A DNA stretch of 21,137 nt, from positions 7,171 to 28,307 of IMG/VR virus record IMGVR_UViG_3300030328_003950. One strand, written 5' to 3'. This DNA comes from a virus. Of this stretch, positions 1-21,137 are shown in pieces (within the stretch, counting starts at the first letter, position 1; every line of letters begins with the position of its first letter). A program made the translations under genes and the position numbers. Under the pieces are notes generated by a model. The model saw only the letters and a program-made list of their open reading frames with translations. It did not search any database and had not been told where the DNA came from.

Positions 1-3000
1 TGGTATATTTCTTTACCTAAAAATGCAACTGGTACAAACGGAAATACAAATATTGCAACTACTAATGGTTCATATATTTGGGGATTACAGGCGGAAGAAG
101 TTACAAATTATCCAACTGAATACATTCCTACTAGTGGATTACCAAGAACTGTAGATACTATAGGTTCTGTAAAAGATTATCATAAAGGAAAATTTGTAGA
201 TATTGGTTCTAATATAGGAATAGGATGTACTCACGTCTTTAAGTATCCTGATATTGAAGTTAAATTGGAAAGTACTTCTGGTCGTGAGGTAATTGAAGCT
301 TCTTCATTGCCTATTATTAGACCATTAATGCGAGGAAGTATTAGAGATGTATTTCTAACTGAAACTGGTGTTGGATATGGTTCTACAGACACCATTAATG
401 GACACAGAAGACCTTTGGTTACTATTTCTAATGGTTCTAAAGGATTGGTTGATGTTGATGTTTCAAATGGAGAATTAAGTGATGCTTTTGTAAAAATTAG
501 TGGTGAAGGATATGCTTCTCCTCCAGAATTAATTGTGGAAGGTGAAGGCAAATATGGAAAATTGATACCTAATGTTGAAGATGGTCAACTTACAAGTGTT
601 ATTATTGCAGATAAAGGTAAAGATTATACAAAAGTTCCAGATACAACCGTAAGAATAAAACCACAAGGTTCTGGAGCTGTTTTTAGAGGAGATTTGAGAG
701 AGTGGAGATTAACAACAGTTGATAGATATAAAAATTCAATTAGTCAAAATGATGACGGTATAATTTTACCAAGTCAACATTCTGAGTATGGTTCAAAGTT
801 TGTATCTGCATATTTGCCAAGAAAATTAAGATTAATTCTTGATGATAATATTAATACAGATCTCAGTGAGAAAACATCTCTTTCTCATTCTCCTATAGTT
901 GGATGGTCGTATGATGGAGCTCCAATTTATGGGCCATATGGATATACATCTAATACTGGAGGAACAGTTCGTAGACTACTTCCTGGATATACAGCTAATT
1001 TAAAATCTAATAGACCACCAACTTCTGTATTTCCTCTTGGATTCTTTGTTGAAGATTATGACTATACTGCAAGTGGAGACTTGGATGAAAATAATGGTAG
1101 GTTTGGAAAGACTCCAGAATATCCAGATGGAGTTTATGCATATTTCTGTACTATTTCCTCTGAGGATGGTGATGGGCCATTTACAGCATCTAAGAAACCA
1201 GTATTCCCATACGTTTTAAATGGATATCATTTTAATAAGGAAGAATTGAACGGTAGACCATTATCTTTACAAACTTTACCAATACTTAATAGTGGTGATC
1301 TTATAAGAAATACTCTACCATATAAACTTGGATTCCTTAATGCTGATTATGATTATTTGGTATCTAATAATATTGAAGATACTGAATTAAGTATTCAAAC
1401 TATTGCTAAAAGTGGTATAGGTTCTGTATTAGTTAAGGAACCTGGTGAAAATTATAAGATTGGTGATACTGTAGTCTTTAATAATGATTATTCTGGTGGT
1501 AGAAATGCTATGGCTAGAGTAAGAACTCTAGTTGGTAAAGGTATTACTGAAGTATCATATACAAAAACTACTATTAATAATATAACATTTGATTATAGAA
1601 ATGCAAATGGAAATGGTATAGGTATTGCAGCTACTGCTCATGGATTGCAAAATAATGATTTGGTTATTGTTTCTGGTATTGGAACAGGAGAATTAAAATT
1701 CCTTGAAGGGCCTAAAACAATTGCAGTAAGTTCGGTAACTTCTAAATTAGGATCTGAGTTACGTAGGATTGGATTAACTGGTGATACTGAGTTTATAGAA
1801 CTTGTTGATGTTGTGGGTGGTAGGACTAAAGATGATGATATAATGGTTGATGATTGGTTAATTATTGGAGAAAATGAGGAAAAGGTTAGAGTTTTAGAAA
1901 TTGATGAAACTCTAGGAAGATATAAAATTTTACGTCAAACTGGTATAGGTCAAACATGGTTTGATGCTGGTACTAAGGTTTCTATAGATCAAAGTAAATT
2001 TACTTTTCCAGCTGGTATAGGTACTGATTTAATTATTAGACGTAATGCAACTCTTACATTTGATCCTCAAGGTACTATTGGTATTGGAACTGTATTAGTT
2101 AATCTTACAACGGATAATGGATTAACTGCTCCAACTGTAAGAATGAAAGCTAGAAATAATGAAATTCTAGAAGATCATCAATTACCACCAAATATTGGAC
2201 AACCTGGTAGTAATGCCGATAATACTATTTCTATACCAAATCATGGTTTATTGACAGGACAAAGATTAAGATATTCTAAGAGTCCTGTTGGTGCTGCATT
2301 ATCAGTGTCACCAAATGTTGGTTTGGGCAATTCTTTCAGATTAGAGGATGGTAGTTATGTTTATGCAGTTAAAAAGAGTAATGATTTACTTGGTATTACT
2401 ACAACTAGGGTTGGTGTAGGAACTACCTCTGCTTCTTTGTATATTTGCACTATCAAGGATGCTAATAAAGTAGCTCATTCATTTAGAACAACTAATGAAG
2501 AACATGTTGGTTCAATAGATAAAATTGATGTTGGTGTTTATACTGTTTCTGAACATACTTTAAAAACTGGCGATGATGTAACTATTGATATTTCATCTAA
2601 TGACACAATTAATAAAACTATTGAATATGATTCTGATTCTAGAAGTACTATAGTTGATCCATATTATATTGCAAGTAGTAATATATCAACTAGTGATTCT
2701 TCCTTTACTTTAAATAATCATGTATTTGAAGATGGTGATAAGATACTTTATTCACATACTACAAATCCATCTAATAAAGTATCTACTTTAACTAATGGTG
2801 GTGAATATTATGTTAAAAAAATAAGTGCGAATAAATTTAGATTATTTGATAATCGTAAAGATTCTATTAGTGTTCCATCTGCACATATAAAAATAATTCA
2901 TGCTGGATCTGGTGTTCATAGAATTGTAAAAATTAATCCACCAATATCTGTTATGAGAGGAGAAACTGTTGGTTTTGCAGTTTCTGACCCTTCTAATACA

Positions 3001-6000
3001 GGATTCATACTTGAATTCTTTAAAGATGAGAAATTCAAAAATGAATTTGATGGTATTGGAATTTCAACAGAAATTGTAAGAACTGGTACTCCTGGTACTG
3101 CTGGTGCTATAGTTAATTTAAAATTAACTAATGATGTGCCATTACCATTATGGTATAAATTAACTCCAACTTCTCTTAATACTATTAATGATTCTAAGAG
3201 AGATAGTTATCCAGATGATAATGTTATTAGTAGATCTAAAATATCTATTACTCCTAGCACATATGCTGGTAATTTTGGAATTAAAACCACTGGAATAACT
3301 TCGTTTACTTATCAAGTACCTGTTATACCAGAAAGAACTTCTTATACTCAATCTGGAATTAGTACATATCGATATGTTACAGATTCTGAAAATGCATTAG
3401 GTGGAATTAATGAAATCCAAGTAAGATTTCCTGGTGTTGATTATCAAAAGAATCCTGGCATTTCTAGTATAAGAACTACTACTGGAAAGGATGGATTTAT
3501 TAGAATGTATGATGATACTTTAGGTCGTCCTGGATATAAAGAAGTTGTAAAAATAGGATATGATTATCCAACAGATAAGTCTTTAAGTCCTAGAGCTGAT
3601 ACTCCAGTAACTGTAACTGTAGAAAATAACCTTGTTATTGGTTCAATTGGTATAGTAACTGCTGGTAGAAATTATAGTACAGCTCCAGATTTATTTTTCC
3701 CAATTAGACCTACAGCTAAGACTAAGGTTCATTTAGAAGGTACTTCTATAGGATCTGTTGAAATTCTTGAGGATAGTTTAACTGGATTTAATGAGGTTCC
3801 AAATCCACCAAGAATCATACCAATTAATAATACTAATGGTGTTGGTGTTGTTACTGCTAGATGTTTTGATAATTCTGGTAATCCTAATAAATTCCCATTA
3901 ATTGAAATAAAAAGACCAATTGGTGGATGGAGACCAGCAGAACATGATGATGGTACTAATTTCCCATTTGCAGTTGGTGATGATGTTTATATTGAAAATG
4001 TTAATATTGATGAAGGTGATGATCCTCGTGTTTATGAACAAGGAAAAGTAATTGGTTATAATTCAGATATGTATGATTATACTACATTTAAAATTACAGA
4101 AATTAATATAGGTAATTCTTGGTTTAAATATTCTCTTGTTGGTATAGGTACTTGGGGTGGTACATTCGATCCTATTAATAGTGCTGGTAGAGTTATTAAA
4201 AAAGGAGATCTACCAACATTCAATGTTACTTTTGAACATAGAGATTTCATTAATGGAGAACCAGTTACATTTGGTGATGGATCAGCTACTGGAGAAATGC
4301 TTAAGAATTGGGGATGGGATGCAGCTACTAACTCATTTAGATTAAGGAATCTGACTAGAACTCCTTATGTGGGTGATGTAATTGTTGGTAAACTCTCAAA
4401 AGCTTCTGGTAAAGTTGTAAAATCTGTCTTTAAAGAGAAATATTTTACTCTTGATCATAAAGCTGATAGAGTAAAAGGTTGGCAGAAAGATACTGGTAAG
4501 TTAAATAACGATTTTCAAAGAATTCCAGATAATGATTATTATCAGAATTTCTCATATTCAATTCAAAGTGAAGTTCAAGAACAAAACTTTAAGGATGCTT
4601 TAGAAAATATAGCACATCCTACTGGATATAAAAATTTCTCAGATCTAATTATTAAATCTAATGCGACTCCTGGTTTTGCTAGAAGCACTACTCTTACAGC
4701 AAGATCACCACAAAGTGCAACAGATCTAAAAGTTAATATTGATAATATTGCTTCCATGTATGTGAAAAATGATTATGATTTTGCAACGGAAGAGACATTT
4801 AACACTGGTGGATCTGCTGGTGGTGGTACAGATTTATCTAAGTTTATTAGTTTCCAGAATAGAAAAATTACTAACCTTTTAAGTGTTAGTTCTGCTAAGG
4901 TGGAAATAATTGATGATATTAGTGGTGAATTTGATGGAAAAACTGGATCATTCCTTGGAGAGCATACATTCCTTAGATCAGATCCAAGTATTAATGGTGG
5001 TGCTGGTATCACTATAGTATCTGGAGGATCTGGATCATTAACTCCAGCTGTACAAAAATATCATAGTGTTAGTAATGCAGCTTATACTGCTTCAAATGGT
5101 AATATGGTATTGACCTTAGAATCTGGTCATGGATTGTTAGTGGGTGAAAGTATTCATATAGAGAAAGAAAGTCTTCCATTTACATGTGCAATGGATGGTA
5201 ATTCTTATATTAAGAATTATCCTCGTAGTACTGATCCACAATATAATAAATTTGTAGATATTACTGCCGTAAGTGGTAATAATATTACTGTAAATGTTGG
5301 AACATCACCAATAGTAAATCATAACGTTACTAATGCTACATATAACCCCAATACTGGTGATATGGAGTTAACCATTGGTTCTCATACACTTGATATTGGT
5401 GAAAGTGTTAAAATTACAACGGGATCATTAATATTCCAATGTACTCAGGATAATAATGGCTCTGATCATGCGTATCCAAGAAATACTATTGATAATCATA
5501 CAGCTGTTGATGCTGATTATGATCCAGCTACTGGATTAATTGACATTAAAACATCTGCAGCTCATGGAATGACTGTTGGTGATTTAGTTAAATTGGATGA
5601 TAATTCAATATCATTTAAGTGTGATTATGGTAATTATCCACATACTTATGTTGGTGGTACTGTTACTAATGGTGTTTCTGTAACTGGTGGTAGTTCATTT
5701 AATGTTACTGATGCATATTATACTGGTAATAATGGTCATTTGGTATTGACAATAGGAACTCATAGTTTAACAACGTCCAATACAGTTACTCTTACCAGTG
5801 GTGCATTTAAATTTACATGTGATTCTGATAGTAATACTGCTATAATAAGTTATCCTCGTGCTACAGATCCTGCTCATAATACTGCAATTAATATTATTGC
5901 AGTAGATCAAGCTGGTGGAAGAATTACAGTTAATGTTGGTACTAAGGCTGATGATGTTAAATCTTATCCAAGAGCGACTGATCCTATCAGTGGAAAATGG

Positions 6001-9000
6001 AAAAAGGTTATAAGTACACCATCAAATGATAGATTTGTTATTCAAGTTTTGAATACAATTCCTTCTACCAATACTGATACTCATTATTTTGTATCTGCTA
6101 CTAATAATGGTATTAAACAGAAGAGGGATAGATCATATGATTCTGCTATTCCAATTAAAGCTGTAACATCAACTAAAATTACATTAAATGTTGGTAAATC
6201 TTCCAATACAACTACTCATAGATGGAAACCAAGTCATACCGCATCTAATGCTATCCAAAGTGGTGGTAATTATACACATACTTGGATTGGTGGAACTAAA
6301 ACTGATTCTGTTACTAGTGGTGGTACATCTTATGATCCATATACTGGCAAATTAACTATTGTTACTACAACTGCACATGGATTGAATAATGGTGCTACTA
6401 TCTCGATTTCTGATAATTCTCTAATATTTGCTTGTGATAGAGATAATTATACTACAGAACATGCATATCCTCGTACTTCTGATCCAGCATCAACTTCAAA
6501 TGCTAAGTTGAATAATGGTGTTTTAGCTATTTCTAATAAATCTGGATCATCATTTGATGTTACGATAACAACTCCAGTATTAGGTGGAAGGGTAGTTGGT
6601 TTAAGTTCATTTAGACTTACTAGTCAGAATGGAGGAGTTCCTTTATTTACTAAGGTGTTTAATCCATCAGATAGTACTATAATGACTCTTAATTCTGATA
6701 TCTTTAGAATTAATAATCATGGTTTTGCTACAGGTGAGAAGATTCAATATGATCCTGGTAATTATAATTATGGTAATAATAGAGTTAGTATTGCTGCTAC
6801 TAATACATATGAAGCATCTGTTGGTGGTGCAACAACTAATTTCTTGCCATCAACTTTGTATGTTATAAAGTTAGATAATAATAGATTTAAAGTTACTGGA
6901 TTCTCCACATCTACAGCTGACAATACTTTTGTTCCTACAGCTGTAGGAACAGGTACAGAACATTCATTTGATGCTGGTAATCCAGAAAATAGAGTGATGA
7001 TTGATATTGATGGTATTATCCAATCTCCTTTATATAATAAGAGTGTTTCTGTTGTATTGGCTAATGCAGTAGGTCTTACATCAACATCACTTAAACTTAA
7101 AGGTGCAGGTGGTCAAGCTGGAATTACATCTATAAAATCAAATGATATTATTAATATTGGTAATGAATTGATGAGAGTTAATCAAGTAGGTATTGGATCT
7201 ACTAATGTCGTATCTGTTGATCGTGCTATTTTTGGTACTACCAGAGAATCTCATTTGGTTAGTGCAGCATGTACGATGAAGGCTGGTCATTTTAATATTG
7301 TTAAGGATGTACTTTACTTTAAGACACCTCCATATGGGCCAACAGGAGAAGTAGGACTTACTACACAATCTTCATTCCATGGCAGAGTGTTTAATAGAAG
7401 AGATGTTGCAAATAATTTTATATTTGATGATATTTCTCATAAATTTACTGGAAATGCTGGTACAGGAAGAACATTTACATTAACTGAAAATTCTTCTGAT
7501 GTAACTGGTATTGTTACTACAGTTCAAGGTTCTGGTGGAAGTGATGAAGTTACTAATTATGGTGTTATTTTAATTAATGGTGTTTTCCAAAGACCAAAAG
7601 TTGATTATGAAATGACTCCTAGATCAATATCACCACATGTTGGTATTGGTGGATCAGTATCATTTACAGGCGAAACTATTGAGTCTATTCCTAGAGGTGG
7701 GAAAATTGGTGAAGTAGTTCCTCATAGTGTTCTTAATAGTGGTTTTGGTGGTGGATATCAACCAAGAATACCTGCTGCAGCAACTGCAGTTATTAATGCT
7801 GCTGGTTCTGTTCAAAGTGTTACTGTTACTGGTAGTGGATCTGGATATCAATCTGGGCCAGTAACTGTTGAAATTCAAAATCCATTAGGAGTTGGTTCTG
7901 CAGCAGTTCTTACAGCAACTGTTGGTACTGGTGCAAATCAAGGTAAGATTACAGGTATTACTACTGTTAGTGGTGGTACTGGATATTCTTCTACAGTACC
8001 TCCAATAGTTAAAGTTGGTATTGCTACAGGATATACTAATTTATCATTTACAGGTGGAACTGGTAGTGGATTTGTAGTTGATGCTGTTGTTGGTGCTGCT
8101 GGAAGTATAATAAGTTATGATATACGTAATAGAGGTTTTGGATATAAGAATGGTGAAGTGTTGACAATAGCTGGTATTCCTACAGATGTTACTGCAGGTG
8201 CTGGATATAGTTCATTTGAATTTAAAGTAAAAGAAGTCTTTGATGATGAATTTTCTGGTTATAGTTTTGGTCAATTAGTACCTTTGGATGATTTCTCTAA
8301 AGAATTTAATGGTGTTAAGAAAGTATTTACTTTAACCAAAACAGATATAGTAAAAGAAGTTGTGACTATTCTTTCTTTAGATACATCTGTTAATGCTACA
8401 AATAATCTCTTAATATTCCTTAATGATGTTTTACAGAAACCAGGAGAAAATTATAGTCTTACTGGTGGTACTACAGTTAATTTTGTAGAAGCTCCAAGGG
8501 GTGGAAGTAAGTTACAAGTATTATTCTATAGGGGTAGTAATGCAGATATTGAAGCATTAAATCCAGTTAAGACAATTAAAGTTGGTGATAAAATTCAAAT
8601 ATTACAAGGTGAAAATCTCCAATCTCAAACTGATCGTGTTGTTTCTGAAATTACTGATGTTAGTAAAGTAGAAACACCTCCTTATGGTGGTGGTGGAATT
8701 ACTACCGATACCAGTTTAGTTAGAGTTTCTGCTTGGAAGAAACAAGAAAGTGATTTGATAGTTGACGGTTTACCTATTGCTAAAGATAGACCAACACTTA
8801 TTGGTAAATTTACCCCTAGTGCAAATATTATTCAAAGTGTTGGCATTACTTCTGGCACACTTTATGTCGATAATGCGTTCCCACTCTTTAGTGCATATGA
8901 TAATAGAACTGATACTGATGATATTCCTGGTGAAGTAGAATTATTAAATGTGCAAGATATTAAATCTGCTCATGGTTACAGTACTATAAGTGCTGGTGGT

Positions 9001-11061: not shown

Positions 11062-11064
11062 ATA
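11057..11064 (+). promoter_or_regulatory. Candidate T4-type late promoter before gp8
   Basis: CATAAATA differs from the T4 late promoter core TATAAATA only in its first base. It overlaps the stop codon of the giant virion gene and would start transcription near 11070, about 15 nt before the gp8 ATG. In T4-like phages this element is read by the late sigma factor gp55. Short AT-rich motifs also arise by chance in this DNA, but this one lies in one of only two real intergenic gaps. Confidence 0.5.
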
Positions 11065-11084
11065 AACAAAAATAGTCTAATAAA

Positions 11085-12689
11085 ATGCCTGCGATTATTT
11101 CAGACCAATTTAGAATATTAAATGCTGCGAATTTTGTCGCTGGTGTAGCTGACACTTCGCAGACATATTACACATTTATAGGATTCCCAAATTCTCAAGA
11201 TGTTGCTGCTGGTTACGGTAAAACAGATTGGAATACTAATACTCCTGCACCTAAAGATGGATTTAAAGAGTATAATGATGTATGGGATACTATGCTCGGT
11301 CTTAAAAAATTGACCGATGGTGATATACAAAGAATGGTGAAGAAAAATACATGGACTGCTGGTACTGTCTATGAAATGTATAAGAATTCTTATACTAGGG
11401 AAACTCAGAGTCCTAAAACATCTTCTACCAATTTATATGATGCACAATATTACGTTGTTAATAGTGATCTTAAAGTTTACATTTGTATTAACAATGGTCA
11501 AAGTCCTGACAACCCACAAGGTAGACAGTCACTTGACGAACCCAATTTTGTTGATTTAGAACCAAGAGCTGCTGGTACTAGTGGTGATGGTTATATTTGG
11601 AAATATCTTTATACAATTAAACCAGCAGAAATAGTAAAATTTGATTCCATTGACTTTATGCCTGTTCCTAATGAATGGGGATCTGGTGAAAGTTCAGATG
11701 TTAAAAATAATGCGGTAGATGGAAAGATTGAAACCGCAGTTATTGTTAATGCTGGTGATGGTTATCAACCTATAGGTACTACATTTAATAATGTTCCTAT
11801 TCTTGGAGACGGTACTGGCGGTAAAGCATCAGTAACAGTTAATTCTCAAGGAAGAGTATCTGATATTACTATAACAAATGGTGGTACTGGATATAGTAGA
11901 GGTGCTATTCGGTTTTATCCAGGAGCTCCTGGTGCTGAGACTGGTGGGCCACTTAATGGATTATCTGCTGTTGGTGTTGCTGGAACGTCTGTTGCTGAAT
12001 TTGAAGTTGTTATTCCACCTCCAGGTGGTCATGGTAATGATGTTTATACAGAACTTGGTGCATATAGAGTACTAATGTATTCTAGATTTGAGAATGATGC
12101 ATCAAATCCAGATTTTATTGTTGGAAATGATTTTGCTCAAGTTGGTTTAGTTAAAAATCCACAAACTATTAGTGGTGCTAATCTAAATATTGCAAAAGCT
12201 AGTGCTTTAACTGCTCTTAGACTTAAGACAACTGGTGGTGGAAATATTGGAGATACTGTATTTACAGTAGATACTCCAGTATCTCAAACCATAGGTGTTG
12301 GTTCTACTGCAGTAGGTTATGTTGCTAGTTGGGATTCATCAACTAGAATCTTGAAGGTATATACACCAACTGGTATTGGTAATTCAACTTATGGATTCCG
12401 TATGGTTGATTTTACATCTAAAATAGGGCCAGGTGGTAGTTATAATATTGTTGGTAATGCTAGTGGTAGTGCATGTGGAATTGATACTACTTTTGGTACA
12501 GATTCCGTAAAAGTTTCTTCTACTACAGTTGGAACTGCAATTGTTCAATTAGGACAAGATTTTGCAGAAGGTGTCGCTTTACCAGAAGTTAAAAAATATT
12601 CTGGTGAGATCTTATACATAGATAACAGGGCCGCAATACAACGTAGTGCTACCCAGAAAGAAGACGTAAAAATCGTATTAGAGTTCTAA
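11085..12689 (+). CDS. gp8: Baseplate wedge subunit gp8 (enlarged T4 gp8 homologue)
   Basis: The product is 534 aa; T4 gp8 has 334. Colinear matches to T4 gp8, recalled rather than computed, run along the chain: an FR..N-NF start (residues 9-17), D-V-W-D-T-M-x-G near 65-72 (T4 D-M-W-T-H-M-M-G), G-D-G-Y-I-W-K-Y-L-Y at 167-176 (T4 G-D-G-Y-V-W-E-Y-L-F), and the C-terminus S-G-E-I-L-Y-I-D-N-R at 506-515 (T4 S-G-E-M-I-Y-M-E-N-R) before the final beta strand. gp8 is a wedge component that bridges gp7, gp6 and gp10 in the T4 baseplate. Extra length lies at about 216-310, with two GxGY units, and about 360-500, a Gly/Thr-rich beta segment. The ATG is 23 nt after the previous stop, with no clear Shine-Dalgarno sequence; the candidate late promoter at 11057 lies just upstream. 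The next gene follows after 4 nt. Confidence 0.88.
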   Translation: MPAIISDQFRILNAANFVAGVADTSQTYYTFIGFPNSQDVAAGYGKTDWNTNTPAPKDGFKEYNDVWDTMLGLKKLTDGDIQRMVKKNTWTAGTVYEMYKNSYTRETQSPKTSSTNLYDAQYYVVNSDLKVYICINNGQSPDNPQGRQSLDEPNFVDLEPRAAGTSGDGYIWKYLYTIKPAEIVKFDSIDFMPVPNEWGSGESSDVKNNAVDGKIETAVIVNAGDGYQPIGTTFNNVPILGDGTGGKASVTVNSQGRVSDITITNGGTGYSRGAIRFYPGAPGAETGGPLNGLSAVGVAGTSVAEFEVVIPPPGGHGNDVYTELGAYRVLMYSRFENDASNPDFIVGNDFAQVGLVKNPQTISGANLNIAKASALTALRLKTTGGGNIGDTVFTVDTPVSQTIGVGSTAVGYVASWDSSTRILKVYTPTGIGNSTYGFRMVDFTSKIGPGGSYNIVGNASGSACGIDTTFGTDSVKVSSTTVGTAIVQLGQDFAEGVALPEVKKYSGEILYIDNRAAIQRSATQKEDVKIVLEF

Positions 12690-12693
12690 GAAA

Positions 12694-15600
12694 ATGCCTC
12701 AAGAGACCAATCTGAACGTTTCTCCGTATTTTGATGATTTTAATGAAGATAAGAACTTTAAACGAGTTCTATTTAAACCTGGTAGCCCTGTTCAGGCTAG
12801 AGAATTAACTCAGTTACAAACTATTTTACAGAATCAAATTGAAAAATTTGGTCAACACTTCTTTAAAGAAGGTTCTATAGTTATTCCAGGTCAACTGTCA
12901 TATGATGCACAGTATGAAGCAATTGAATTGCAGAATACTTTTTTGGGTGTTCCTGTTTCAGAATATCTTGATCAATTAGTTGGTAAAGTTATAAAAGGAG
13001 AAACTTCTGGTGTAGAGGCAAAAGTAGTTAATTATATTCTTTCTACAAGATCTGATAGAGGTACTAATACTTTATACATCAAATATACGAAAGCTGGTGA
13101 TGATTTTACAACTAATACATTTAATGATGGTGAAAATCTTATAGCTTCAACTGATATTGAGTATGGATTATCCTCTCGTGTTATTGCTAATAATCCATTT
13201 GCTACAACTATTGCATTAAATGCTGCATCTACTGGTTCTGCTGCTTCTGTGGCTGAAGGTGTATATTTTATTAGGGGTTATTTTGTAAAAGTAACTGCAC
13301 AAACTGTTATTATAGATCAGTATGATAATAGTCCTACAGCTAGAGTTGGTTTATATTTGGATGAGAATGTAGTAACTGCATTTGATGATGCTACTTTATT
13401 CGATAATGCAGCTGGATTCTCTAACTTTGCAGCACCTGGTGCTGATAGATTTCAGTTAAAACCAACATTAATTAGTAAAGATATTGATGATCTTAATGAT
13501 GCTAATTTTATAGAATTATTAAGAGTTCGTAATGGTAATAGAGAAAAATTTGTTAAGAAGACAGAATATAATATTATTGCAGATGAACTTGCTAGAAGAA
13601 CATATGATGAAAGTGGGAATTATTACGTAACACCTTTCGGTGTACAAGTTAGAGAATCTCTTAATAATAGAGAAGGTAATAATGGTGTATATTTTGATAC
13701 TCAGAAAACTTCTAAGGGTAATGATCCAAGTTCAGATCTTATGATCTATCAAGTAGGCCCAGGCAAGGCTTATGTTCGAGGATATGAAATTGAAAATCCA
13801 GGTAATGATTTTCTTGATGTAGAAAAACCAAGAACTACTAAAACATTAAAGAAACAAGCAGTTGCTTTTGATAGATGTTCTAAGATAAAATTAAATCGTG
13901 TTTTTGGAGCTGCTTCTGTTGGTTTAGGCAATAATACTGTAATTGAATTAAGAGATCAAAGATGTGCAGCAAGTCAAACTAGTGGTGCTGGTAATCAAAT
14001 TGGTGTTGCTAGAGTATATGATTTTAAATTAGAAGCTGCTGCATATTCTAACGATGCAAGTGTATATGAATGTTTCTTATGGGATATTCAGACATTTACT
14101 ACTCTAGTAGTAAATAGTTCTCTTACTGCTATTGATGGGTCATTAATTGAAGGTGCTAGAAGTGGTGCAAGAGGATATCTTAAATCTGCAGCAAGTGGTA
14201 CAACACTTAGTTTAACATCTGTAAGTGGTGAATTTGTTATAGATGAACCAATAAAGGTTAATGGTGTTGAAGATGGTAAAACTATTACTTCAATAACAGA
14301 ATTTTCTATTGATGATGTTAAATCAATTTTTAAAGATTATGGTGGTGGACGTGAGTTTGCTGCAGATACAGTTCTTTCTAGATTAGGTAATCCAGCACCT
14401 GCAGGAACAGAATATACAATTGCTACTAATGGTGTTGTTAAGGTTGGTGGTGCTAGATTTAGAAGTGGTATTAAAATTGGTGATATTGTAAAATATCAAA
14501 AATCTAATGAATCTGATCCAACATATAATAGAGTTTCTGCTATTAATTCTGCTGGTACTGAAATTACAATTGATGCACTAGCTGCAGATGTTGCTGGAGT
14601 TTGTCAGAAGGAAAGACCAAGTGGTTCTGCTATTGTAACTAGTGATTTTAAAATAGCCAGACCATACTTAATTGACGCTAGAAATTCAAGTCTTCTATCG
14701 GACTTACCAGCTACGTTCATATCAAATGTAGATCTTGGAGACTCTGAAGTTCAAATTAGAAAAGAATATTCTGTTAATGTTTCTGGTAGTAGAGCTACAG
14801 TTACTATAACTGATACTGATTTATTTTTTGAAACATTTGATGAGGAAAGATATAATCTTACATTTGCTAATGGTGCAGTTCAGACATTAACTGAAGAGAA
14901 TATTCAATTTAATGCAACTAGAAAAACTGCTACATTGGTTGGTCTTGATCAAGCTAGCAGTTCTGGATCTATATTTTTAACAACATTAAAGAGAACAACA
15001 CCTAAGGCTCAAACAAAGTCTTTAACTAGATGTAAAACAATTACTATTAATAAAAGTAAATTAAGTGGATCTGGTACTGCTAATAATACTAAAAATGATG
15101 GATTAACTACAAGTAATGTTTATGGAACTAGGGTTCAGGATAATGAAATTTGTTTGAATGTTCCTGATGGTGTTAGAGTTCATGCGGTTTTTGAGTCTAG
15201 TACTAAAGGTAATCCAGTTTTACCAAGAGTAGTCTTGGTTAATAGATCTTCAAACTTGAATAATACTATTCAAGGTGAAATAATGTTGGGTACAGTTAGT
15301 GGTGCAGCTGCAAGAGTAGTAGCTTCCGCAGCTAAGAGAGTTGATGTAGTTTATATCAATGATTTGGAGTTTGAGGAAGAAGAAAGAGTTATTTTTAAAA
15401 GTTCTGGAATAGTTGGAGATGTTTCTAGAGTTGATGAAGGTGATAAAGAAATTAGTTCAGATTTTAGATTTGATACTGGCCAAAGAGCAGAATATTATGA
15501 TTATGCTAGAATAATTAGAAAACAAAATACACCAGATCCAAGCAAAAGAATTACTATAGTATTCGATCATTATATTCTTGATGGTGATGCAGGTGATTTT

Positions 15601-18600
15601 GCAACAGTTAATAGTTATTCACCAGATAATTTTGAGAATGATTTACCAACTTTCAGAGGAACAGATGTTAGTGATTATATTGATGCTAGACCAAGAGTAA
15701 AGGAGATTAGTTCTTCATCGGCTTCTCCATTTGATTATGATAGTCGTGATTTTAGTGTTTCTGGTGTAGCTCCTTCTGTTTTAGTTGGAGATGAGACTGT
15801 AACATTAACATATTCACATTATCTTTCTAGAGTTGATAAAATATATCTAAGTAAAGATGGATTCTTTGAGTTAAAACAAGGATCACCAGCTCCACAAGGT
15901 GATGTTGTCCCACCAGAAGATCCTGCAGGATCTTTTTGTGTCGCTACAATTTTCTGTGCTCCATATGTACGTAGAATTAGAGGATTTACTAATGTTATTG
16001 TAGCAAAACATAAGCGATATACAATGTCTGATATTGCTAGATTGGAAAGTAGAGTAAAAAATGTAGAATTTTATACTCAGTTATCTTTATTAGAAACTGA
16101 TACAGCTACTCTTACAATTACTGACGCAAAATCTGGACTTGATAGATTTAAATCTGGATTCTTTGTAGATAACTTCAAGAGTCATTCTGCTCATGCAGTT
16201 GGACATCCTAATTTTAGTACTTCAATTGATAAAGCTAAAGGAGAATTAAGGCCAACTCATTATACTCATGGTCTTGATCTTCTTCTTGGATCCGAACAGG
16301 TTATTGGTATTGGTACTACAGCTGATCCGAATGCAGATTTAAGTGAAGTTGCAGATTTGCAATCAAATGATCTAAAGAGAAGTGGTGATATAGTAACATT
16401 AAATTTTGATGAAGTTGAATTTATATCACAGAAATTTGCTACAAGAACTGAAAATGTAAATCCATTCGCAGCTGTTGTGTGGGTTGGTGGTGTAGAATTG
16501 AATCCTAATAGTGATGTATGGGTAAATGAAAAAAGACTTGATGCAAATGTTGTTGATGTTGAAGGTGATTATGCAAAAACATTACATAATTTACAAATAG
16601 ATCCTAATACAGGATTAAGTCCTATTGATTGGAATTCATGGGAAGAAGTTTGGTCTTCTACTGATGTTAGTGTTAAAAAGACAGGTTCTAAGCAATCTGG
16701 TTTTCAAACTACTAGGGTAGAAAGGTGGAGTCAAGGAGGTGATGATTATACAAGAACACATCAAGTAAATACAACAACTGATTATTTTGAGGAGTCAACT
16801 ACAGTTGATCGTGGAATGTCACGTAGTGGTATTCAGTTTGAAGTTGTTGAAAAAATTGATAGTCAGAGTTTAGGTGATAAACTTGTTAGCCAGGAAACTA
16901 TTCCTTATATGAGATCTAGAAATATTGAATTTATTGCAACAAGAGTACAACCAGGTACTAGATTCTATACATTCTTTGATGGTCAAGATGTAGATAAGTA
17001 TATGACACCAAAACTTCTTGAAATTGAAATGGAAAGTGGTGTATTTCAGGTTGGTGAAACGGTTGTTGGTACTAAAGGTGATCCATTACACACAGGTTCT
17101 GGGCCAAGAATAACATTTAGAACTGCACAACCAGATCATAAATTTGGTTCATATAATGATCCTAGAATAGTATATGATGTTAATCCATATTCAGATACTA
17201 TTGGCATAGGTTCTAATTATTCTGCAACAAGTACAATTTTGAATATTGATACTAAATCTTTACAAGAGAAAGTACTTGGTAAATTTAATGGATATGTTTC
17301 TAAAGGTATGGATCTAGTAGGTAATACTAGTGGTGCTATTGCAAAAATAGTTGATGTTAGATTAATTAGTGACGAAAAAGGTGCTTTATTAGGATCTTTC
17401 TTTATACCAGATCCAACATTTACATCTGCTCCTGAATTTAGAACTGGTAAGAAGACATTTAGAATGACCAGTAGTAAAACTGATTCTCGAGCACCTCTTG
17501 ATCGTGCATCTGCAGCTCAAGCTAATTTTAGAGCTGAAGGAACCTTGAATACAATTCAAGAAGATATAATGAATATCAGAAATGCTGAAATTCAACAGAA
17601 TAGTGTGAGTGATAGTAAGATAGTAAGTAAGACTACAACAAAAACATTCCAAACACAATCATTTGAAGAGAGACATTCAACACAAGTTCAATATGCTGAT
17701 CCTCTTGCAGAATCATTTGAAGTAACTGACGTTAATGGTGTCTTTATTAACTCTTGTGATATTTGGTTCCAAACAAAAGATACTAAGATTCCTGTAACTT
17801 GCCAAATTAGAACAATGGCATCAGGATTACCTACTACTAAGATTTTAGCTTTTGCTGAATGTACATTAGATCCTGATCAGGTTGAAGTTTCTAAATTTGG
17901 TACAAAGAAAACAACATTTACATTCCCATCTCCAGTATATCTTGAGGGTGGTGGTGAAGAATATGCAATAGTTCTAATTTCACAATCTAATGATTATAAT
18001 GTGTTTATTTGTAGGATGGGTGATGAAGATCTTGAGGATAGAAATCTTGAAGAAAGTGAAAGAAGAATTGTTTCTCAACAACCATATTTGGGATCATTAT
18101 TTAAATCACAAAATGGTTCTACATGGGATCCAAGTCAATTTGAGGATCTTAAATTTACACTTAATAAATGTAAATTTGTTCCTGGCCCAGGCGCATTAAA
18201 ACTTTATAATCCAGAATTGGGTGAAGGTGAAATGGAGAATCCTATTTTGAGACCAAATCCATTTACATTTAACTCTAATCATGTAAAAATTGAATTACAA
18301 GGTAATAGTAGTACTGCTACAAGTAATTGGCCAATTGGTTCTAGATTAACACAAACAAGTAATACAAGTACTGAAGGTTTTGTTGTTGCACATTTAGGAT
18401 CTCTTAATACAGCTGCATATCAAACTGGAACTGGTATTGGATTAACTCCTGCTGCTAGTAATTTAACTTACACTGGAATTGGATTAACATCTATTACTGG
18501 TGATGGTGATGGTGCAGTAGCTTCTATCGTTATTAATAGTGGTGCTGTTAATAGTATTAGTGTAACAGGTGCTGGATCTGGATATAAGGTGGGTGATGTT

Positions 18601-20172
18601 CTTGGAGCTTCTCTTGGAGAAACTGGTAGAAATGTAAGATTTTCTGTTACTGCTGTTAGTGGAACAAATAGTGTTATTCTGAATAAAGTTCAAGGTGAAT
18701 TTAATACTTCTGGAACATTACAATCTATAGCAGCAAATGGTACTAAGACTAGTTTAAATAATGGTAAACCTGATGCAGTTAACACACTAACTCCAGATAA
18801 AGATGGATTATATGTTCATGTAAAACATAGAAATCATGGTATGCACGCTTCTAATAATAGAGTTATCATATCTGATGCTGTAGGTGTTACTACTACCACT
18901 AGATTATCCGAAAAATATGAACATAATTCAAGTAAATTTATTTCTGTTGATGATGCATCTATCTTTACCTCATTTGAAAATATCGCTGTTTCTGCAGCTA
19001 ATACTGGATATGTAAAAATTGGAAATGAAATTATTGGATATAAAGGAACTAATACTGGTACTACACCAAATAGACTTACTGGTATTTCTAGAGGTGTTGA
19101 TAATACAAATGCAGAAACACATAAAGCTAAGAAAAGAATTCGTAAATATGAAGCTGCTGGTGTTTCATTGAGACGAATTAATACTACTCATCAATTCTCA
19201 ACTGTTGATAATACATTACAACCTACTCTTGATGGGTATTATATTAAAATTGATGTTACTGGTACTGGTAATGGTACAATTAGGGATGGAAGTAACTCTT
19301 TTGCAAAATTAAAAATTGCTGAAGATGAAGTTACTGGTGGTAAAATAGTGAGAGCTACACAAAATATTCAATTTGAAGCTGTAACTCCATTGATTGAATT
19401 TATGACTCCTGTTGATACATCTTTAAGTACTAGAGTAAGAACGGTATCTGGAACAAGTGTTGGAGGTGCTGAAGCTTCATTCCAAGATCAGGGATTTGAA
19501 TCTATTGGATTGGGAGGTGCTACATATTTTGATACTCCTAGAATTATATCTTCTAAGATAAATGAACAAAATAATTTGACTAGTTTACCTGGTTCTAAAT
19601 CTTTCACTACAGAATTAATTTTATCCAGTAAGGATACAAATGTATCACCAGTTATTGATTTAGATAGACTTTCTATTATTACAACAACAAATAGATTAGA
19701 TAAAGTAACTACTGACTATAAGACAGATTCTAGAGTTAATAGTTTGTTTGATGATCCAAATGGTGCTGTTTATATTACTAAACGTGTTAATTTGGAAAAT
19801 CCAGCAACTTCATTACAAGTAAGATTTGCTGCTTATATGCATGTTAGTAATGATATTAGAGTTTTATATCGTTTAATTAGACAGGATAGTCCAGTAAGTG
19901 AATCTCCATTCCAACTATTCCCAGGATATAGGAATTTAAGAGATACTACTGGTGATGGATTTGGTGATGAGTTAATTAATTATAGAGATTCTGATGGTAC
20001 TCCAGATAGAAGAGTTCCAGCTTCGAGACATGATGATGAGATGAGAGATCATCAATATACTGCTAATGATTTAGTAGAATTTCATGGATTCCAAATTAAA
20101 GTTATAATGACTGGAACCAATCAGGCTAAAGTCCCTAGAATCAGAGACTTTAGGGCCATTGCGTTAGCATAA
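12694..20172 (+). CDS. Giant DUF4815-type virion structural protein (gp9/gp10 position)
   Basis: The product is 2,492 aa. Its N-terminus (N-V-S-P-Y-F-D-D-F, then F-K-P-G-x-P-V-Q-A-R-E-L-T-Q-L-Q-T at 27-43, then G-P-G-K-A-Y-V-R-G-Y-E-I at 355-366) is typical of DUF4815 proteins of T4-like cyanophages. Later conserved blocks are D-I-A-R-L-E-S-R-V-K-N-V-E-F-Y-T (~1112-1127, short helical segment), N-P-F-A...L-N-P-N-S-D-V-W (~1256), I-P-Y-M-R-S-R-N-I-E-F followed by F-F-D-G-x-D-V (~1403-1432), and D-P-L-A-E-S-F ending in a Y-A-I-V-L-I-S-x-S-N block (~1668-1775). A GxGY unit (18520-18663) and an IGNE...RG...H module (18973-19180) follow, and the protein ends in a conserved F-Q-I-K-V-I-M-T...R-I-R-D-F-R-A-I-A segment. 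T4 has genes 9 and 10 here, so a baseplate-fibre connecting role is likely but inferred. It starts 4 nt after gp8 without a clear Shine-Dalgarno site and its stop overlaps the next start by one base. Confidence 0.85.
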   Translation: MPQETNLNVSPYFDDFNEDKNFKRVLFKPGSPVQARELTQLQTILQNQIEKFGQHFFKEGSIVIPGQLSYDAQYEAIELQNTFLGVPVSEYLDQLVGKVIKGETSGVEAKVVNYILSTRSDRGTNTLYIKYTKAGDDFTTNTFNDGENLIASTDIEYGLSSRVIANNPFATTIALNAASTGSAASVAEGVYFIRGYFVKVTAQTVIIDQYDNSPTARVGLYLDENVVTAFDDATLFDNAAGFSNFAAPGADRFQLKPTLISKDIDDLNDANFIELLRVRNGNREKFVKKTEYNIIADELARRTYDESGNYYVTPFGVQVRESLNNREGNNGVYFDTQKTSKGNDPSSDLMIYQVGPGKAYVRGYEIENPGNDFLDVEKPRTTKTLKKQAVAFDRCSKIKLNRVFGAASVGLGNNTVIELRDQRCAASQTSGAGNQIGVARVYDFKLEAAAYSNDASVYECFLWDIQTFTTLVVNSSLTAIDGSLIEGARSGARGYLKSAASGTTLSLTSVSGEFVIDEPIKVNGVEDGKTITSITEFSIDDVKSIFKDYGGGREFAADTVLSRLGNPAPAGTEYTIATNGVVKVGGARFRSGIKIGDIVKYQKSNESDPTYNRVSAINSAGTEITIDALAADVAGVCQKERPSGSAIVTSDFKIARPYLIDARNSSLLSDLPATFISNVDLGDSEVQIRKEYSVNVSGSRATVTITDTDLFFETFDEERYNLTFANGAVQTLTEENIQFNATRKTATLVGLDQASSSGSIFLTTLKRTTPKAQTKSLTRCKTITINKSKLSGSGTANNTKNDGLTTSNVYGTRVQDNEICLNVPDGVRVHAVFESSTKGNPVLPRVVLVNRSSNLNNTIQGEIMLGTVSGAAARVVASAAKRVDVVYINDLEFEEEERVIFKSSGIVGDVSRVDEGDKEISSDFRFDTGQRAEYYDYARIIRKQNTPDPSKRITIVFDHYILDGDAGDFATVNSYSPDNFENDLPTFRGTDVSDYIDARPRVKEISSSSASPFDYDSRDFSVSGVAPSVLVGDETVTLTYSHYLSRVDKIYLSKDGFFELKQGSPAPQGDVVPPEDPAGSFCVATIFCAPYVRRIRGFTNVIVAKHKRYTMSDIARLESRVKNVEFYTQLSLLETDTATLTITDAKSGLDRFKSGFFVDNFKSHSAHAVGHPNFSTSIDKAKGELRPTHYTHGLDLLLGSEQVIGIGTTADPNADLSEVADLQSNDLKRSGDIVTLNFDEVEFISQKFATRTENVNPFAAVVWVGGVELNPNSDVWVNEKRLDANVVDVEGDYAKTLHNLQIDPNTGLSPIDWNSWEEVWSSTDVSVKKTGSKQSGFQTTRVERWSQGGDDYTRTHQVNTTTDYFEESTTVDRGMSRSGIQFEVVEKIDSQSLGDKLVSQETIPYMRSRNIEFIATRVQPGTRFYTFFDGQDVDKYMTPKLLEIEMESGVFQVGETVVGTKGDPLHTGSGPRITFRTAQPDHKFGSYNDPRIVYDVNPYSDTIGIGSNYSATSTILNIDTKSLQEKVLGKFNGYVSKGMDLVGNTSGAIAKIVDVRLISDEKGALLGSFFIPDPTFTSAPEFRTGKKTFRMTSSKTDSRAPLDRASAAQANFRAEGTLNTIQEDIMNIRNAEIQQNSVSDSKIVSKTTTKTFQTQSFEERHSTQVQYADPLAESFEVTDVNGVFINSCDIWFQTKDTKIPVTCQIRTMASGLPTTKILAFAECTLDPDQVEVSKFGTKKTTFTFPSPVYLEGGGEEYAIVLISQSNDYNVFICRMGDEDLEDRNLEESERRIVSQQPYLGSLFKSQNGSTWDPSQFEDLKFTLNKCKFVPGPGALKLYNPELGEGEMENPILRPNPFTFNSNHVKIELQGNSSTATSNWPIGSRLTQTSNTSTEGFVVAHLGSLNTAAYQTGTGIGLTPAASNLTYTGIGLTSITGDGDGAVASIVINSGAVNSISVTGAGSGYKVGDVLGASLGETGRNVRFSVTAVSGTNSVILNKVQGEFNTSGTLQSIAANGTKTSLNNGKPDAVNTLTPDKDGLYVHVKHRNHGMHASNNRVIISDAVGVTTTTRLSEKYEHNSSKFISVDDASIFTSFENIAVSAANTGYVKIGNEIIGYKGTNTGTTPNRLTGISRGVDNTNAETHKAKKRIRKYEAAGVSLRRINTTHQFSTVDNTLQPTLDGYYIKIDVTGTGNGTIRDGSNSFAKLKIAEDEVTGGKIVRATQNIQFEAVTPLIEFMTPVDTSLSTRVRTVSGTSVGGAEASFQDQGFESIGLGGATYFDTPRIISSKINEQNNLTSLPGSKSFTTELILSSKDTNVSPVIDLDRLSIITTTNRLDKVTTDYKTDSRVNSLFDDPNGAVYITKRVNLENPATSLQVRFAAYMHVSNDIRVLYRLIRQDSPVSESPFQLFPGYRNLRDTTGDGFGDELINYRDSDGTPDRRVPASRHDDEMRDHQYTANDLVEFHGFQIKVIMTGTNQAKVPRIRDFRAIALA

Positions 20173-20375
20173 TGGATTATACACAAGTCGAAGGTAGGAA
20201 TGATCTTTTCAGGGATAGTGATAGTGGAGCTATCATTAATACTGATAGATCATCCTATTTGGCATATAAAACTAATAGAGAACAAAAACTAAAAGATGTG
20301 GAAAGAATTAATAAATTGGAAAATGATGTTTCCGATATAAAGACTCTTCTTAACACAATAATCGATAAGTTATAA
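20172..20375 (+). CDS. Small conserved phage protein with C-terminal coiled coil (67 aa)
   Basis: This 67-aa protein starts at the ATG sharing one base with the stop of the preceding giant gene (TAATG), suggesting translational coupling; no good Shine-Dalgarno site is seen. The N-terminal half has V-E-G-R-N-D-L-F-R-D and S-G-A-I-I-N-T-D-R-S-S-Y, a pattern I recognise from small hypothetical proteins in the structural clusters of T4-like cyanophages. The second half is charged and helical, with heptad-spaced hydrophobics (R-I-N-K-L-E-N-D-V-S-D-I-K-T-L-L-N-T-I-I), so it probably forms a short coiled coil. There is no signal peptide or membrane segment. Its function is unknown; a minor structural or assembly role is inferred from context only. 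Confidence 0.75.
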   Translation: MDYTQVEGRNDLFRDSDSGAIINTDRSSYLAYKTNREQKLKDVERINKLENDVSDIKTLLNTIIDKL

Positions 20376-20376
20376 T

Positions 20377-20392
20377 TAGATAAATATATCTA
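20377..20392. repeat. AT-rich inverted repeat in intergenic gap
   Basis: TAGATA and TATCTA form a perfect 6-bp inverted repeat around the 4-nt centre AATA, directly after the stop of the 67-aa gene. It overlaps the candidate late promoter at 20379. The stem is all A/T except one G-C pair and has no U tract, so it is a poor terminator. Confidence 0.5.
20379..20386 (+). promoter_or_regulatory. Candidate T4-type late promoter before the small tail-gene block
   Basis: GATAAATA matches the T4 late promoter core TATAAATA at 7 of 8 bases. It would start transcription near 20392, about 22 nt before the ATG at 20414. It lies in the largest intergenic gap of the window (38 nt). Confidence 0.5.
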
Positions 20393-20413
20393 GACGAAAC
20401 TACATCTTAAATA

Positions 20414-20755
20414 ATGGCTGTATACGTTGTAAATTTGGTAATAGATCAAGGGGCAGATTTTAGCCAGACATTTAATCTTGAAGATGATGCTTCTGGTGGT
20501 GCTTTAGATCTTGCTGGATATGCAGGAGCAGCACAACTCCGTAAACATTCTTCTAGTAAGAAGAAATATGATTTTGCGGTGGCATTTCCTGATAGGGGGA
20601 ATGGAATTGTAAGAATTGATATGACAGATAGTGTGACAACTGGTATTAAAGCTGGTCGTTATGTTTATGATATTCTTCTTACTGATTCTGGTGGTAGTAG
20701 GACGAGGATCGTAGAAGGATCCGCTCTAGTTAGAGAAGGTGCTACAAAGGTTTAA
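20414..20755 (+). CDS. Small tail protein with BppU/Ig-like fold pattern (113 aa)
   Basis: The 113-aa product follows the pattern of a widespread small phage domain similar to the N-terminal domain of baseplate protein BppU: D-Q-G-A-D-F-S-Q-T-F-N-L (residues 11-22), D-L-A-G-Y-x-x-x-A-Q-L-R (32-43), G-N-G-I-V-R-I-D-M-T (62-71), G-x-Y-V-Y-D-I-L-L (81-89), then I-V-E-G-S-A-L-V at the end. Such domains are all-beta and usually attach receptor-binding parts to the baseplate or fibre. The ATG is 38 nt after the previous stop behind a candidate late promoter; no clear Shine-Dalgarno sequence is present. The next gene starts 3 nt after the stop. The fold assignment is by pattern only. Confidence 0.75.
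   Translation: MAVYVVNLVIDQGADFSQTFNLEDDASGGALDLAGYAGAAQLRKHSSSKKKYDFAVAFPDRGNGIVRIDMTDSVTTGIKAGRYVYDILLTDSGGSRTRIVEGSALVREGATKV
20746..20750 (+). promoter_or_regulatory. Ribosome binding site for the 73-aa gene
   Basis: AAAGG ends 8 nt before the ATG at 20759 and lies inside the last codons of the preceding gene. It supports that start and coupled translation. Confidence 0.5.
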
Positions 20756-20758
20756 CTT

Positions 20759-20980
20759 ATGGCTATTAAAGTTCGAGTTGGTCAACAAACTGGTGTAAAG
20801 GTTCCAACAACATCGTCTACATCTGGTGGTACTATGGCTAGTATGTCAGATACTGATGTGAGTGCTGTTTCTAACGGCTCTGTTTTGGTTTATGATGCTA
20901 ATTTGAGTAAGTGGATTGCCACTAATGAATTAACACCAACAAATACAAAAAATCTAGACGTTAACGGAGGATCGTTCTAA
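20759..20980 (+). CDS. Small tail-fibre-associated protein (73 aa)
   Basis: This 73-aa protein begins M-A-I-K-V-R-V-G-Q and has the segment D-V-S-A-V-S-N-G-S-V-L-V-Y-D with S-K-W near residues 34-52. That segment matches a short motif (L-x-D-V...G-x-x-L-x-Y-D...x-W) recurring in phage tail-fibre and tail-associated proteins. Small proteins of this shape sit before fibre genes in T4-like cyanophages. It has no membrane or signal segment and is rich in Ser and Thr. It is preceded by an AAAGG site, and its stop codon overlaps the ATG of the next gene by one base. A structural role is inferred; the exact function is unknown. Confidence 0.7.
   Translation: MAIKVRVGQQTGVKVPTTSSTSGGTMASMSDTDVSAVSNGSVLVYDANLSKWIATNELTPTNTKNLDVNGGSF
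20966..20970 (+). promoter_or_regulatory. Strong Shine-Dalgarno for the downstream fibre gene
   Basis: GGAGG lies 9 nt before the ATG at 20980, within the last codons of the 73-aa gene. It is the best ribosome binding site near any start in the window and fixes the start of the fibre-like gene. Confidence 0.7.
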
Positions 20981-21137
20981 TGGCCAGTAAGATTAGAATA
21001 CATAGATCTACTGGTGCGGCTGCTCCTAGTTCTTTGGAATTTGGAGAATTAGCAGCAACTGTAGAACAGGGAACCGCTGGTACTTCCGCCAATAAAGCGG
21101 GACGTATTTTTATAGGTAATGTTGCAGGAAACCCTGT
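20980..21137 (+). CDS. Tail-fibre-like protein, N-terminal fragment (3'-partial)
   Basis: Only the first 52 codons lie in the window. The sequence M-A-S-K-I-R-I-H-R-S-T-G, then A-P-S-S-L-E-F-G-E-L-A, then A-G-R-I-F-I-G-N follows the known N-terminal pattern K-I-x-x-(R/K)-R-S...P...L-x-x-G-E-L-A...(G)-R-(L/I)-(F/Y)-(I/V)-G-N of phage tail fibres and major-tropism-determinant-like proteins, where it forms a small attachment domain. The ATG overlaps the preceding stop (TAATG) and has a good GGAGG site. The receptor-binding part would lie beyond the right edge. Confidence 0.75.
   Translation, partial: MASKIRIHRSTGAAAPSSLEFGELAATVEQGTAGTSANKAGRIFIGNVAGNP

What the first reader, a model, noticed from the sequence alone, without database searches (positions are those of the whole stretch)
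1..21137. Complete absence of GGWCC with GGSCC retained: an AvaII-type restriction-avoidance footprint
Reading the whole window I find no GGACC and no GGTCC, yet 12 GGGCC (931, 1174, 1708, 7336, 7855, 9643, 10996, 11946, 12426, 12628, 17101, 20153) and 2 GGCCC (13756, 18184). Base composition alone predicts the opposite ratio; at about one third G+C I would expect roughly ten GGWCC. Gly-Pro pairs show it best: all 12 use GGG (10) or GGC (2), although GGT and GGA dominate everywhere else and GGG before other residues is seen only a handful of times. The substitutions are synonymous, so the DNA word itself is selected against. GGWCC is the AvaII specificity of Anabaena, common among cyanobacteria. 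This suggests that a host, or a recent host, carries such an enzyme. CCWGG, GATC, GAATTC and CTGCAG are all present, so palindromes in general are not avoided.
Basis: partly seen in the sequence, partly recalled or inferred. Interest (0 to 1): 0.75.

Follow-up and report, generated by a model that had tools for sequence, protein, structure and literature searches.

The report
Cyanophages that purged every GGWCC site
A lineage of viruses that infect cyanobacteria has removed every copy of one five-letter DNA word, GGWCC, most likely because some of their hosts carry an enzyme that cuts DNA at it, and plausible genes for that enzyme turned up in a few picocyanobacterial genomes.

Summary
The window is the baseplate operon of a Kanaloavirus-like T4-type cyanophage. 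The absence extends to the rest of the record and 28 other contigs of its clade (0 against ~189 in 296 kb, all codon frames). A second lineage (118,934-bp contig) also has zero, against ~86. Close relatives such as S-CAM9 have normal counts, so the word was probably lost at least twice. Of 57 S-CAM9 GGWCC sites alignable to that contig none is kept and 27 became GGSCC; control words are kept 19-52%. Host restriction-site avoidance is the best explanation. A SinI-type (GGWCC) nuclease plus C5 methylase lies in an island beside guaA in 1 of 400 Cyanobiaceae genomes, itself depleted in GGWCC (57 against 153). Two low-GC Cyanobiaceae carry an 85-86% identical methylase with a different nuclease. 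No phage copy was found. Correction: other palindromes are avoided too (CCGG; family-wide TTCGAA, GGTACC, GTGCAC). The kind of phenomenon is known; the clean repeated case, in hosts thought poor in restriction systems, is the interesting part.

The parts
1..21137 (.). Stretch without any GGWCC; it is bases 7171-28307 of a 28,307-bp virus record that has no GGWCC anywhere
1..11061 (+). Giant baseplate-wedge ORF (open at its 5' end), collinear with the S-CAM9 ORF at 52887-64541
11085..12689 (+). gp8-like baseplate wedge protein, 534 aa, 72-74% identical to S-CAM9 and S-8S53/55/56
12694..20172 (+). Large structural protein, 2,492 aa, collinear with the S-CAM9 structural protein at 66178-73704
20414..20755 (+). 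Small ORF (113 aa) at the place of the S-CAM9 ORF annotated as L-shaped tail fiber assembly protein
   Evidence: by position only
931..935 (.). GGGCC at a Gly-Pro pair (frame 0)
1174..1178 (.). GGGCC at a Gly-Pro pair (frame 0)
1708..1712 (.). GGGCC at a Gly-Pro pair (frame 0)
7336..7340 (.). GGGCC at a Gly-Pro pair (frame 0)
7855..7859 (.). GGGCC at a Gly-Pro pair (frame 0)
9643..9647 (.). GGGCC at a Gly-Pro pair (frame 0)
10996..11000 (.). GGGCC at a Gly-Pro pair (frame 0)
11946..11950 (.). GGGCC at a Gly-Pro pair (frame 0)
12426..12430 (.). GGGCC at a Gly-Pro pair (frame 0)
12628..12632 (.). GGGCC in frame 1 of gp8 (not Gly-Pro)
13756..13760 (.). GGCCC at a Gly-Pro pair (frame 0)
17101..17105 (.). 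GGGCC at a Gly-Pro pair (frame 0)
18184..18188 (.). GGCCC at a Gly-Pro pair (frame 0)
20153..20157 (.). GGGCC in frame 1 of the structural protein ORF (not Gly-Pro)

Best explanation
The window comes from a T4-type cyanophage whose lineage has eliminated the word GGWCC under selection by a host Type II restriction enzyme of AvaII/SinI specificity. Phage DNA entering a cell unmethylated would be cut at any GGWCC; a genome with none cannot be cut. Where the protein forces GGNCC (Gly-Pro), the only silent escapes are GGG and GGC, which makes the GGSCC excess. Shown here: the word is gone in two lineages, in every codon frame, in large part by synonymous change. Shown by homology: a few Cyanobiaceae carry a SinI-family nuclease with a C5 methylase, or a near-identical methylase with another nuclease. 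Inferred: that these or similar systems are the selecting agent, that such cyanobacteria are hosts of these phages, and that the enzymes are active.
For: 0 GGWCC against 12.3 in the window, 0 against ~189 in 30 clade sequences in all three frames, 0 against 85.8 in the 118,934-bp contig G001. G001 groups with S-8S55 (27 sites in 50 kb), apart from the window clade; S-CAM9 is normal, 131 against 139. At 57 S-CAM9 sites G001 keeps 0 and has GGSCC at 27; six control words are kept 19-52%. Only Gly before Pro shifts codon. SinI-family nuclease plus C5 methylase in Cyanobiaceae genome G125, whose sampled 200 kb has GGWCC 57 against 153 but GGSCC 136 against 119 and CCWGG 290 against 262. Methylase 85-86% identical in G438 and G453 beside another nuclease. 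Several other restriction-like palindromes are also avoided. Literature: elimination of Type II sites is common in dsDNA phages (PMC6286503).
Against: No host is known for these phages. Matching systems are rare among sampled Cyanobiaceae: 1 of 400 for the nuclease, 3 of 400 for the close methylase. The specificity of the host enzymes is inferred from families and from G125's own depletion. Host depletion in G438 is slight (111 against 128).
Confidence: 0.87

Rival explanations
1. The phage itself encodes a GGWCC-specific nuclease that degrades host DNA or competing phages, and protects its own genome by having no sites.
For: Absence is total, and the genomes of the clade are incomplete, so such a gene could lie outside the sampled parts. 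A Streptococcus phage record does carry a SinI-family nuclease with a methylase.
Against: No SinI nuclease or C5 methylase family in 22 cyanophage records, including 119 kb of G001 (the SinI search had no ringing control, but the same model rang in cyanobacteria). No tblastn hit of the host proteins in the fetched phage loci. No relative of either nuclease among IMG/VR contigs; methylase hits there are only 30-39% identical.
Confidence: 0.05
2. The footprint is a relic: the enzyme acted on an ancestor and the present hosts no longer carry it.
For: Matching host systems are rare. The sister group is intermediate: G019 1 against 15.8, G017 11 against 21.6, G018 14 against 19.4, all with a GGSCC excess, as if sites were returning after release.
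Against: In the window clade no site has returned in any of 28 diverged gp8 rows or in 296 kb, so selection there is recent or continuing. An incomplete gain of avoidance would look the same in the sister group.
Confidence: 0.12
3. A mutational or translational bias, such as deamination of methylated cytosines, codon-pair bias at Gly-Pro, or chance with low G+C, removed the word without restriction.
For: Most expected sites are Gly-Pro codon pairs (168 of ~190), so a codon-pair effect had to be considered.
Against: Frames 1 and 2 are also empty (14 and 8 expected). Deamination would change C to T, but 27 of 57 sites changed only at W. Other four-fold codons before Pro do not shift comparably. 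Near relatives with similar proteins keep the word.
Confidence: 0.02

Closest known systems
Elimination of Type II recognition sites by prokaryotic dsDNA viruses (Rusinov et al. 2018, PMC6286503)
   Same: A short palindromic Type II word is missing from a phage genome although composition and protein predict many copies; typical of non-temperate phages.
   Different: Here it is resolved to lineages: two phage lineages with none beside near relatives with normal counts, and the replacing codons are seen. The main text of that paper does not mention cyanophages.
SinI/AvaII-type (GGWCC) restriction-modification systems
   Same: The G125 locus has an RE_SinI nuclease (PF09570, 138 bits) and a C5 methylase 57% identical to the partner of a SinI-type nuclease in Synechocystis salina.
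   Different: In G438 and G453 nearly the same methylase stands with an unrelated-looking 281-aa nuclease that only weakly resembles RE_TdeIII. Specificity not measured.
Synechococcus phage S-CAM9 and S-8S55 (Kyanoviridae, Kanaloavirus)
   Same: Same baseplate gene order, gp8 72-74% identical to the window; share avoidance of TTCGAA, GGTACC and GTGCAC.
   Different: GGWCC normal or nearly so (131 against 139 and 24 against 30).

Membership tests
Restriction-site elimination in a phage genome | Word absent or nearly so against a null that keeps protein and codon use | tested here: met
Restriction-site elimination in a phage genome | Effect acts on the DNA word, not on one codon pair or one strand frame | tested here: met
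   All three frames empty; other four-fold codons before Pro not comparably shifted
Restriction-site elimination in a phage genome | A host with a restriction enzyme of this specificity | tested here: inconclusive
   SinI-type and related systems found in 3 sampled Cyanobiaceae; no phage-host link and no measured specificity
SinI-type (GGWCC) R-M system in Cyanobiaceae genome G125 | SinI-family nuclease next to a C5 cytosine methylase | tested here: met
SinI-type (GGWCC) R-M system in Cyanobiaceae genome G125 | Cuts and methylates GGWCC | not testable with these tools
   Only indirect: the genome itself has GGWCC 57 against 153
Kanaloavirus (Kyanoviridae) | Nearest annotated relatives and collinear baseplate operon | tested here: met
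Kanaloavirus (Kyanoviridae) | Whole-genome similarity at genus level | not tested
   Only a 28-kb record of the phage is held

The most novel reading that the evidence does not exclude
A mobile GGWCC restriction cassette, with one methylase and interchangeable nucleases, often beside guaA, circulates at low frequency in marine picocyanobacteria and is strong enough to have driven at least two lineages of large T4-type cyanophages to purge every site, although these hosts are thought almost free of restriction systems.
Probability: 0.4. Interest if true: 0.7.

Novelty: new member of a known kind. Interest (0 to 1): 0.52.

Why it matters
Picocyanobacteria are reported at the bottom of the restriction-system distribution, typically 0 to 1 per Prochlorococcus genome (PMC8262939), so restriction is easily left out of their arms race with phages. 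Total loss of one word over 119 kb, apparently at least twice, with near relatives unaffected, says that a GGWCC enzyme does shape cyanophage evolution. It is a readable record of which phage lineages meet which host defence, and it comes with candidate host genes to test.

Tried and rejected
AvaII by name: no AvaII sequence was used; the SinI family (PF09570) stood in for the specificity. Direct pattern search for GGWCC in genomes: pattern too short. Deamination, codon-pair and composition explanations: rejected. Positive selection for GGSCC itself: rejected, since outside frame 0 GGSCC is near expectation (6 against 2.7, 4 against 3.9). Phage-encoded nuclease or methylase: none found. Assembly or sequencing artefact: rejected, because many separate metagenomes agree and sites are replaced by silent changes rather than missing. 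The literature searches made turned up no report of GGWCC avoidance in cyanophages, but only open-licence papers are held.

Full report
WHAT THE WINDOW IS. The window is bases 7171-28307 of a 28,307-bp IMG/VR virus record. Four plus-strand ORFs fill most of it: a giant baseplate ORF (1-11061), gp8 (11085-12689), a 2,492-residue structural protein (12694-20172) and a small ORF (20414-20755). The nearest annotated genomes are Synechococcus phages S-CAM9 and S-8S53/55/56 (Kyanoviridae, Kanaloavirus), with gp8 72-74% identical and the same gene order.

There is no GGACC or GGTCC, and 12 GGGCC and 2 GGCCC stand at the listed positions. With synonymous codons shuffled, 12.3 GGWCC are expected (5,000 shuffles never gave fewer than 8) and 0.75 GGSCC. 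Gly before Pro ends in G or C in 12 of 12 cases, against 1 of 34 before other C-starting codons (p 3e-10). Ala, Val, Thr and Pro before Pro show nothing of the kind in the window.

IT IS CLADE-WIDE AND RECURRENT. A search of IMG/VR with gp8 gave 80 loci. In 30 sequences (the window, the rest of its record, 28 contigs; 296 kb) GGWCC is 0 against about 189. The zeros hold in frame 0 (168 expected), frame 1 (14) and frame 2 (8), and in 7 kb outside called ORFs. These sequences share ancestry, so the 189 are not independent events. A second case therefore matters: contig G001 (118,934 bp, found through its DNA polymerase) has 0 against 85.8, with GGSCC 110 against 30. The gp8 tree puts G001 beside S-8S55 (27 sites in 50 kb) and near S-CAM9 (31 in 50 kb), away from the 28-row window clade. 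S-CAM9 has 131 against 139 and distant cyanophages 178 against 168. Loss therefore happened at least twice, unless several lineages regained the word or it spread by recombination, which a one-gene tree cannot exclude. A sister group of five is intermediate, from 1 against 15.8 to 14 against 19.4.

HOW SITES WERE LOST. Where S-CAM9 has GGWCC and G001 aligns (57 sites), G001 keeps none; 27 are GGSCC and the rest differ in other ways. Six control words are kept in 19-52% of cases. A change at W with both G and both C intact is what selection for a silent escape predicts; deamination of a methylated C would change C instead.

OTHER WORDS. A scan of 4- to 6-mers in the clade shows CCGG 1 against 169, CGCG 1 against 29, GGTACC 0 against 47, GTGCAC 0 against 27 and TTCGAA 0 against 56. 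GGTACC, GTGCAC and TTCGAA are avoided in the related cyanophages generally. CCGG is reduced in all and nearly gone in the window clade and its sister group. Loss of GGWCC is the lineage-specific layer.

HOST SIDE. RE_SinI (PF09570; SinI cuts GGWCC, established knowledge) is present in 5 of 50 named cyanobacterial genomes, none of them a Synechococcus or Cyanobium, and in 1 of 400 Cyanobiaceae, G125. There a 211-aa nuclease precedes a 390-aa C5 methylase in a stretch of 32-34% G+C next to guaA, in a genome of about 41%. G125 itself is depleted in GGWCC (57 against 153 in 200 kb) but not in GGSCC (136 against 119) or CCWGG (290 against 262). Two Cyanobiaceae of 1.5-1.6 Mb and low G+C (0.29-0.33 where sampled) have an 85-86% identical methylase beside a different 281-aa nuclease, identical in both; in G453 it again follows guaA. 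They are 2 of 266 in their genus. Depletion in G438 is slight (111 against 128). Specificity there is inferred from the methylase only.

NOT IN THE PHAGE, AS FAR AS SEEN. No homologue of these proteins in the fetched cyanophage loci, no C5 methylase family in 22 phage records, no relative of either nuclease in IMG/VR. G001 has no obvious restriction gene among its ORFs unmatched in S-CAM9, judged by eye and by tblastn with the host proteins. The phage genomes are incomplete, so this is not final.

PLACE IN WHAT IS KNOWN. Site elimination is an established phage strategy, complete or almost complete in about a tenth of viral genomes (PMC6286503). Picocyanobacteria sit at the bottom of the R-M distribution (PMC8262939). 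A 2010 review suggested a restriction-modification phenomenon behind host-range asymmetry of marine Synechococcus phages (PMC2984593). AvaII methylase (GGwCC) is known from Anabaena PCC 7120 (PMC4390886). The finding is a strong new instance with candidate host enzymes, not a new kind.

Noticed in passing
window 1-21137; L006-L036; S-CAM9 L003-L005; L060-L081: TTCGAA, GGTACC, GTGCAC (also CTCGAG, CACGTG) are strongly avoided across related T4-type cyanophages, and CCGG is reduced in all and nearly absent in the window clade: a layered, family-wide set of restriction-like avoidances.
   Followed up: partly
L260-L265 (G019, G017, G018): Sister group with intermediate GGWCC counts and a GGSCC excess: either a decaying footprint or avoidance in the making.
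   Followed up: partly
L351:1372-3193; L355:611-2688: In two different Cyanobiaceae a C5 methylase with different partner nucleases sits directly after guaA, which suggests an integration hotspot and nuclease swapping.
   Followed up: partly
L356 and L357 (G286, G434): Two further low-GC Cyanobiaceae carry C5 methylases beside an EcoO109I-like and a TdeIII-like nuclease, families whose known sites share a GGNCC core.
   Followed up: no
L219, L149, L159: Short contigs from other cyanophage lineages also have no GGWCC (expected 3-5) and extra GGSCC; possible further independent losses, too short to be sure.
   Followed up: no
OP662530.1, about 18582-20723: Streptococcus phage YS162 carries a SinI-family nuclease and a C5 methylase 48% identical to the picocyanobacterial one.
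   Followed up: no
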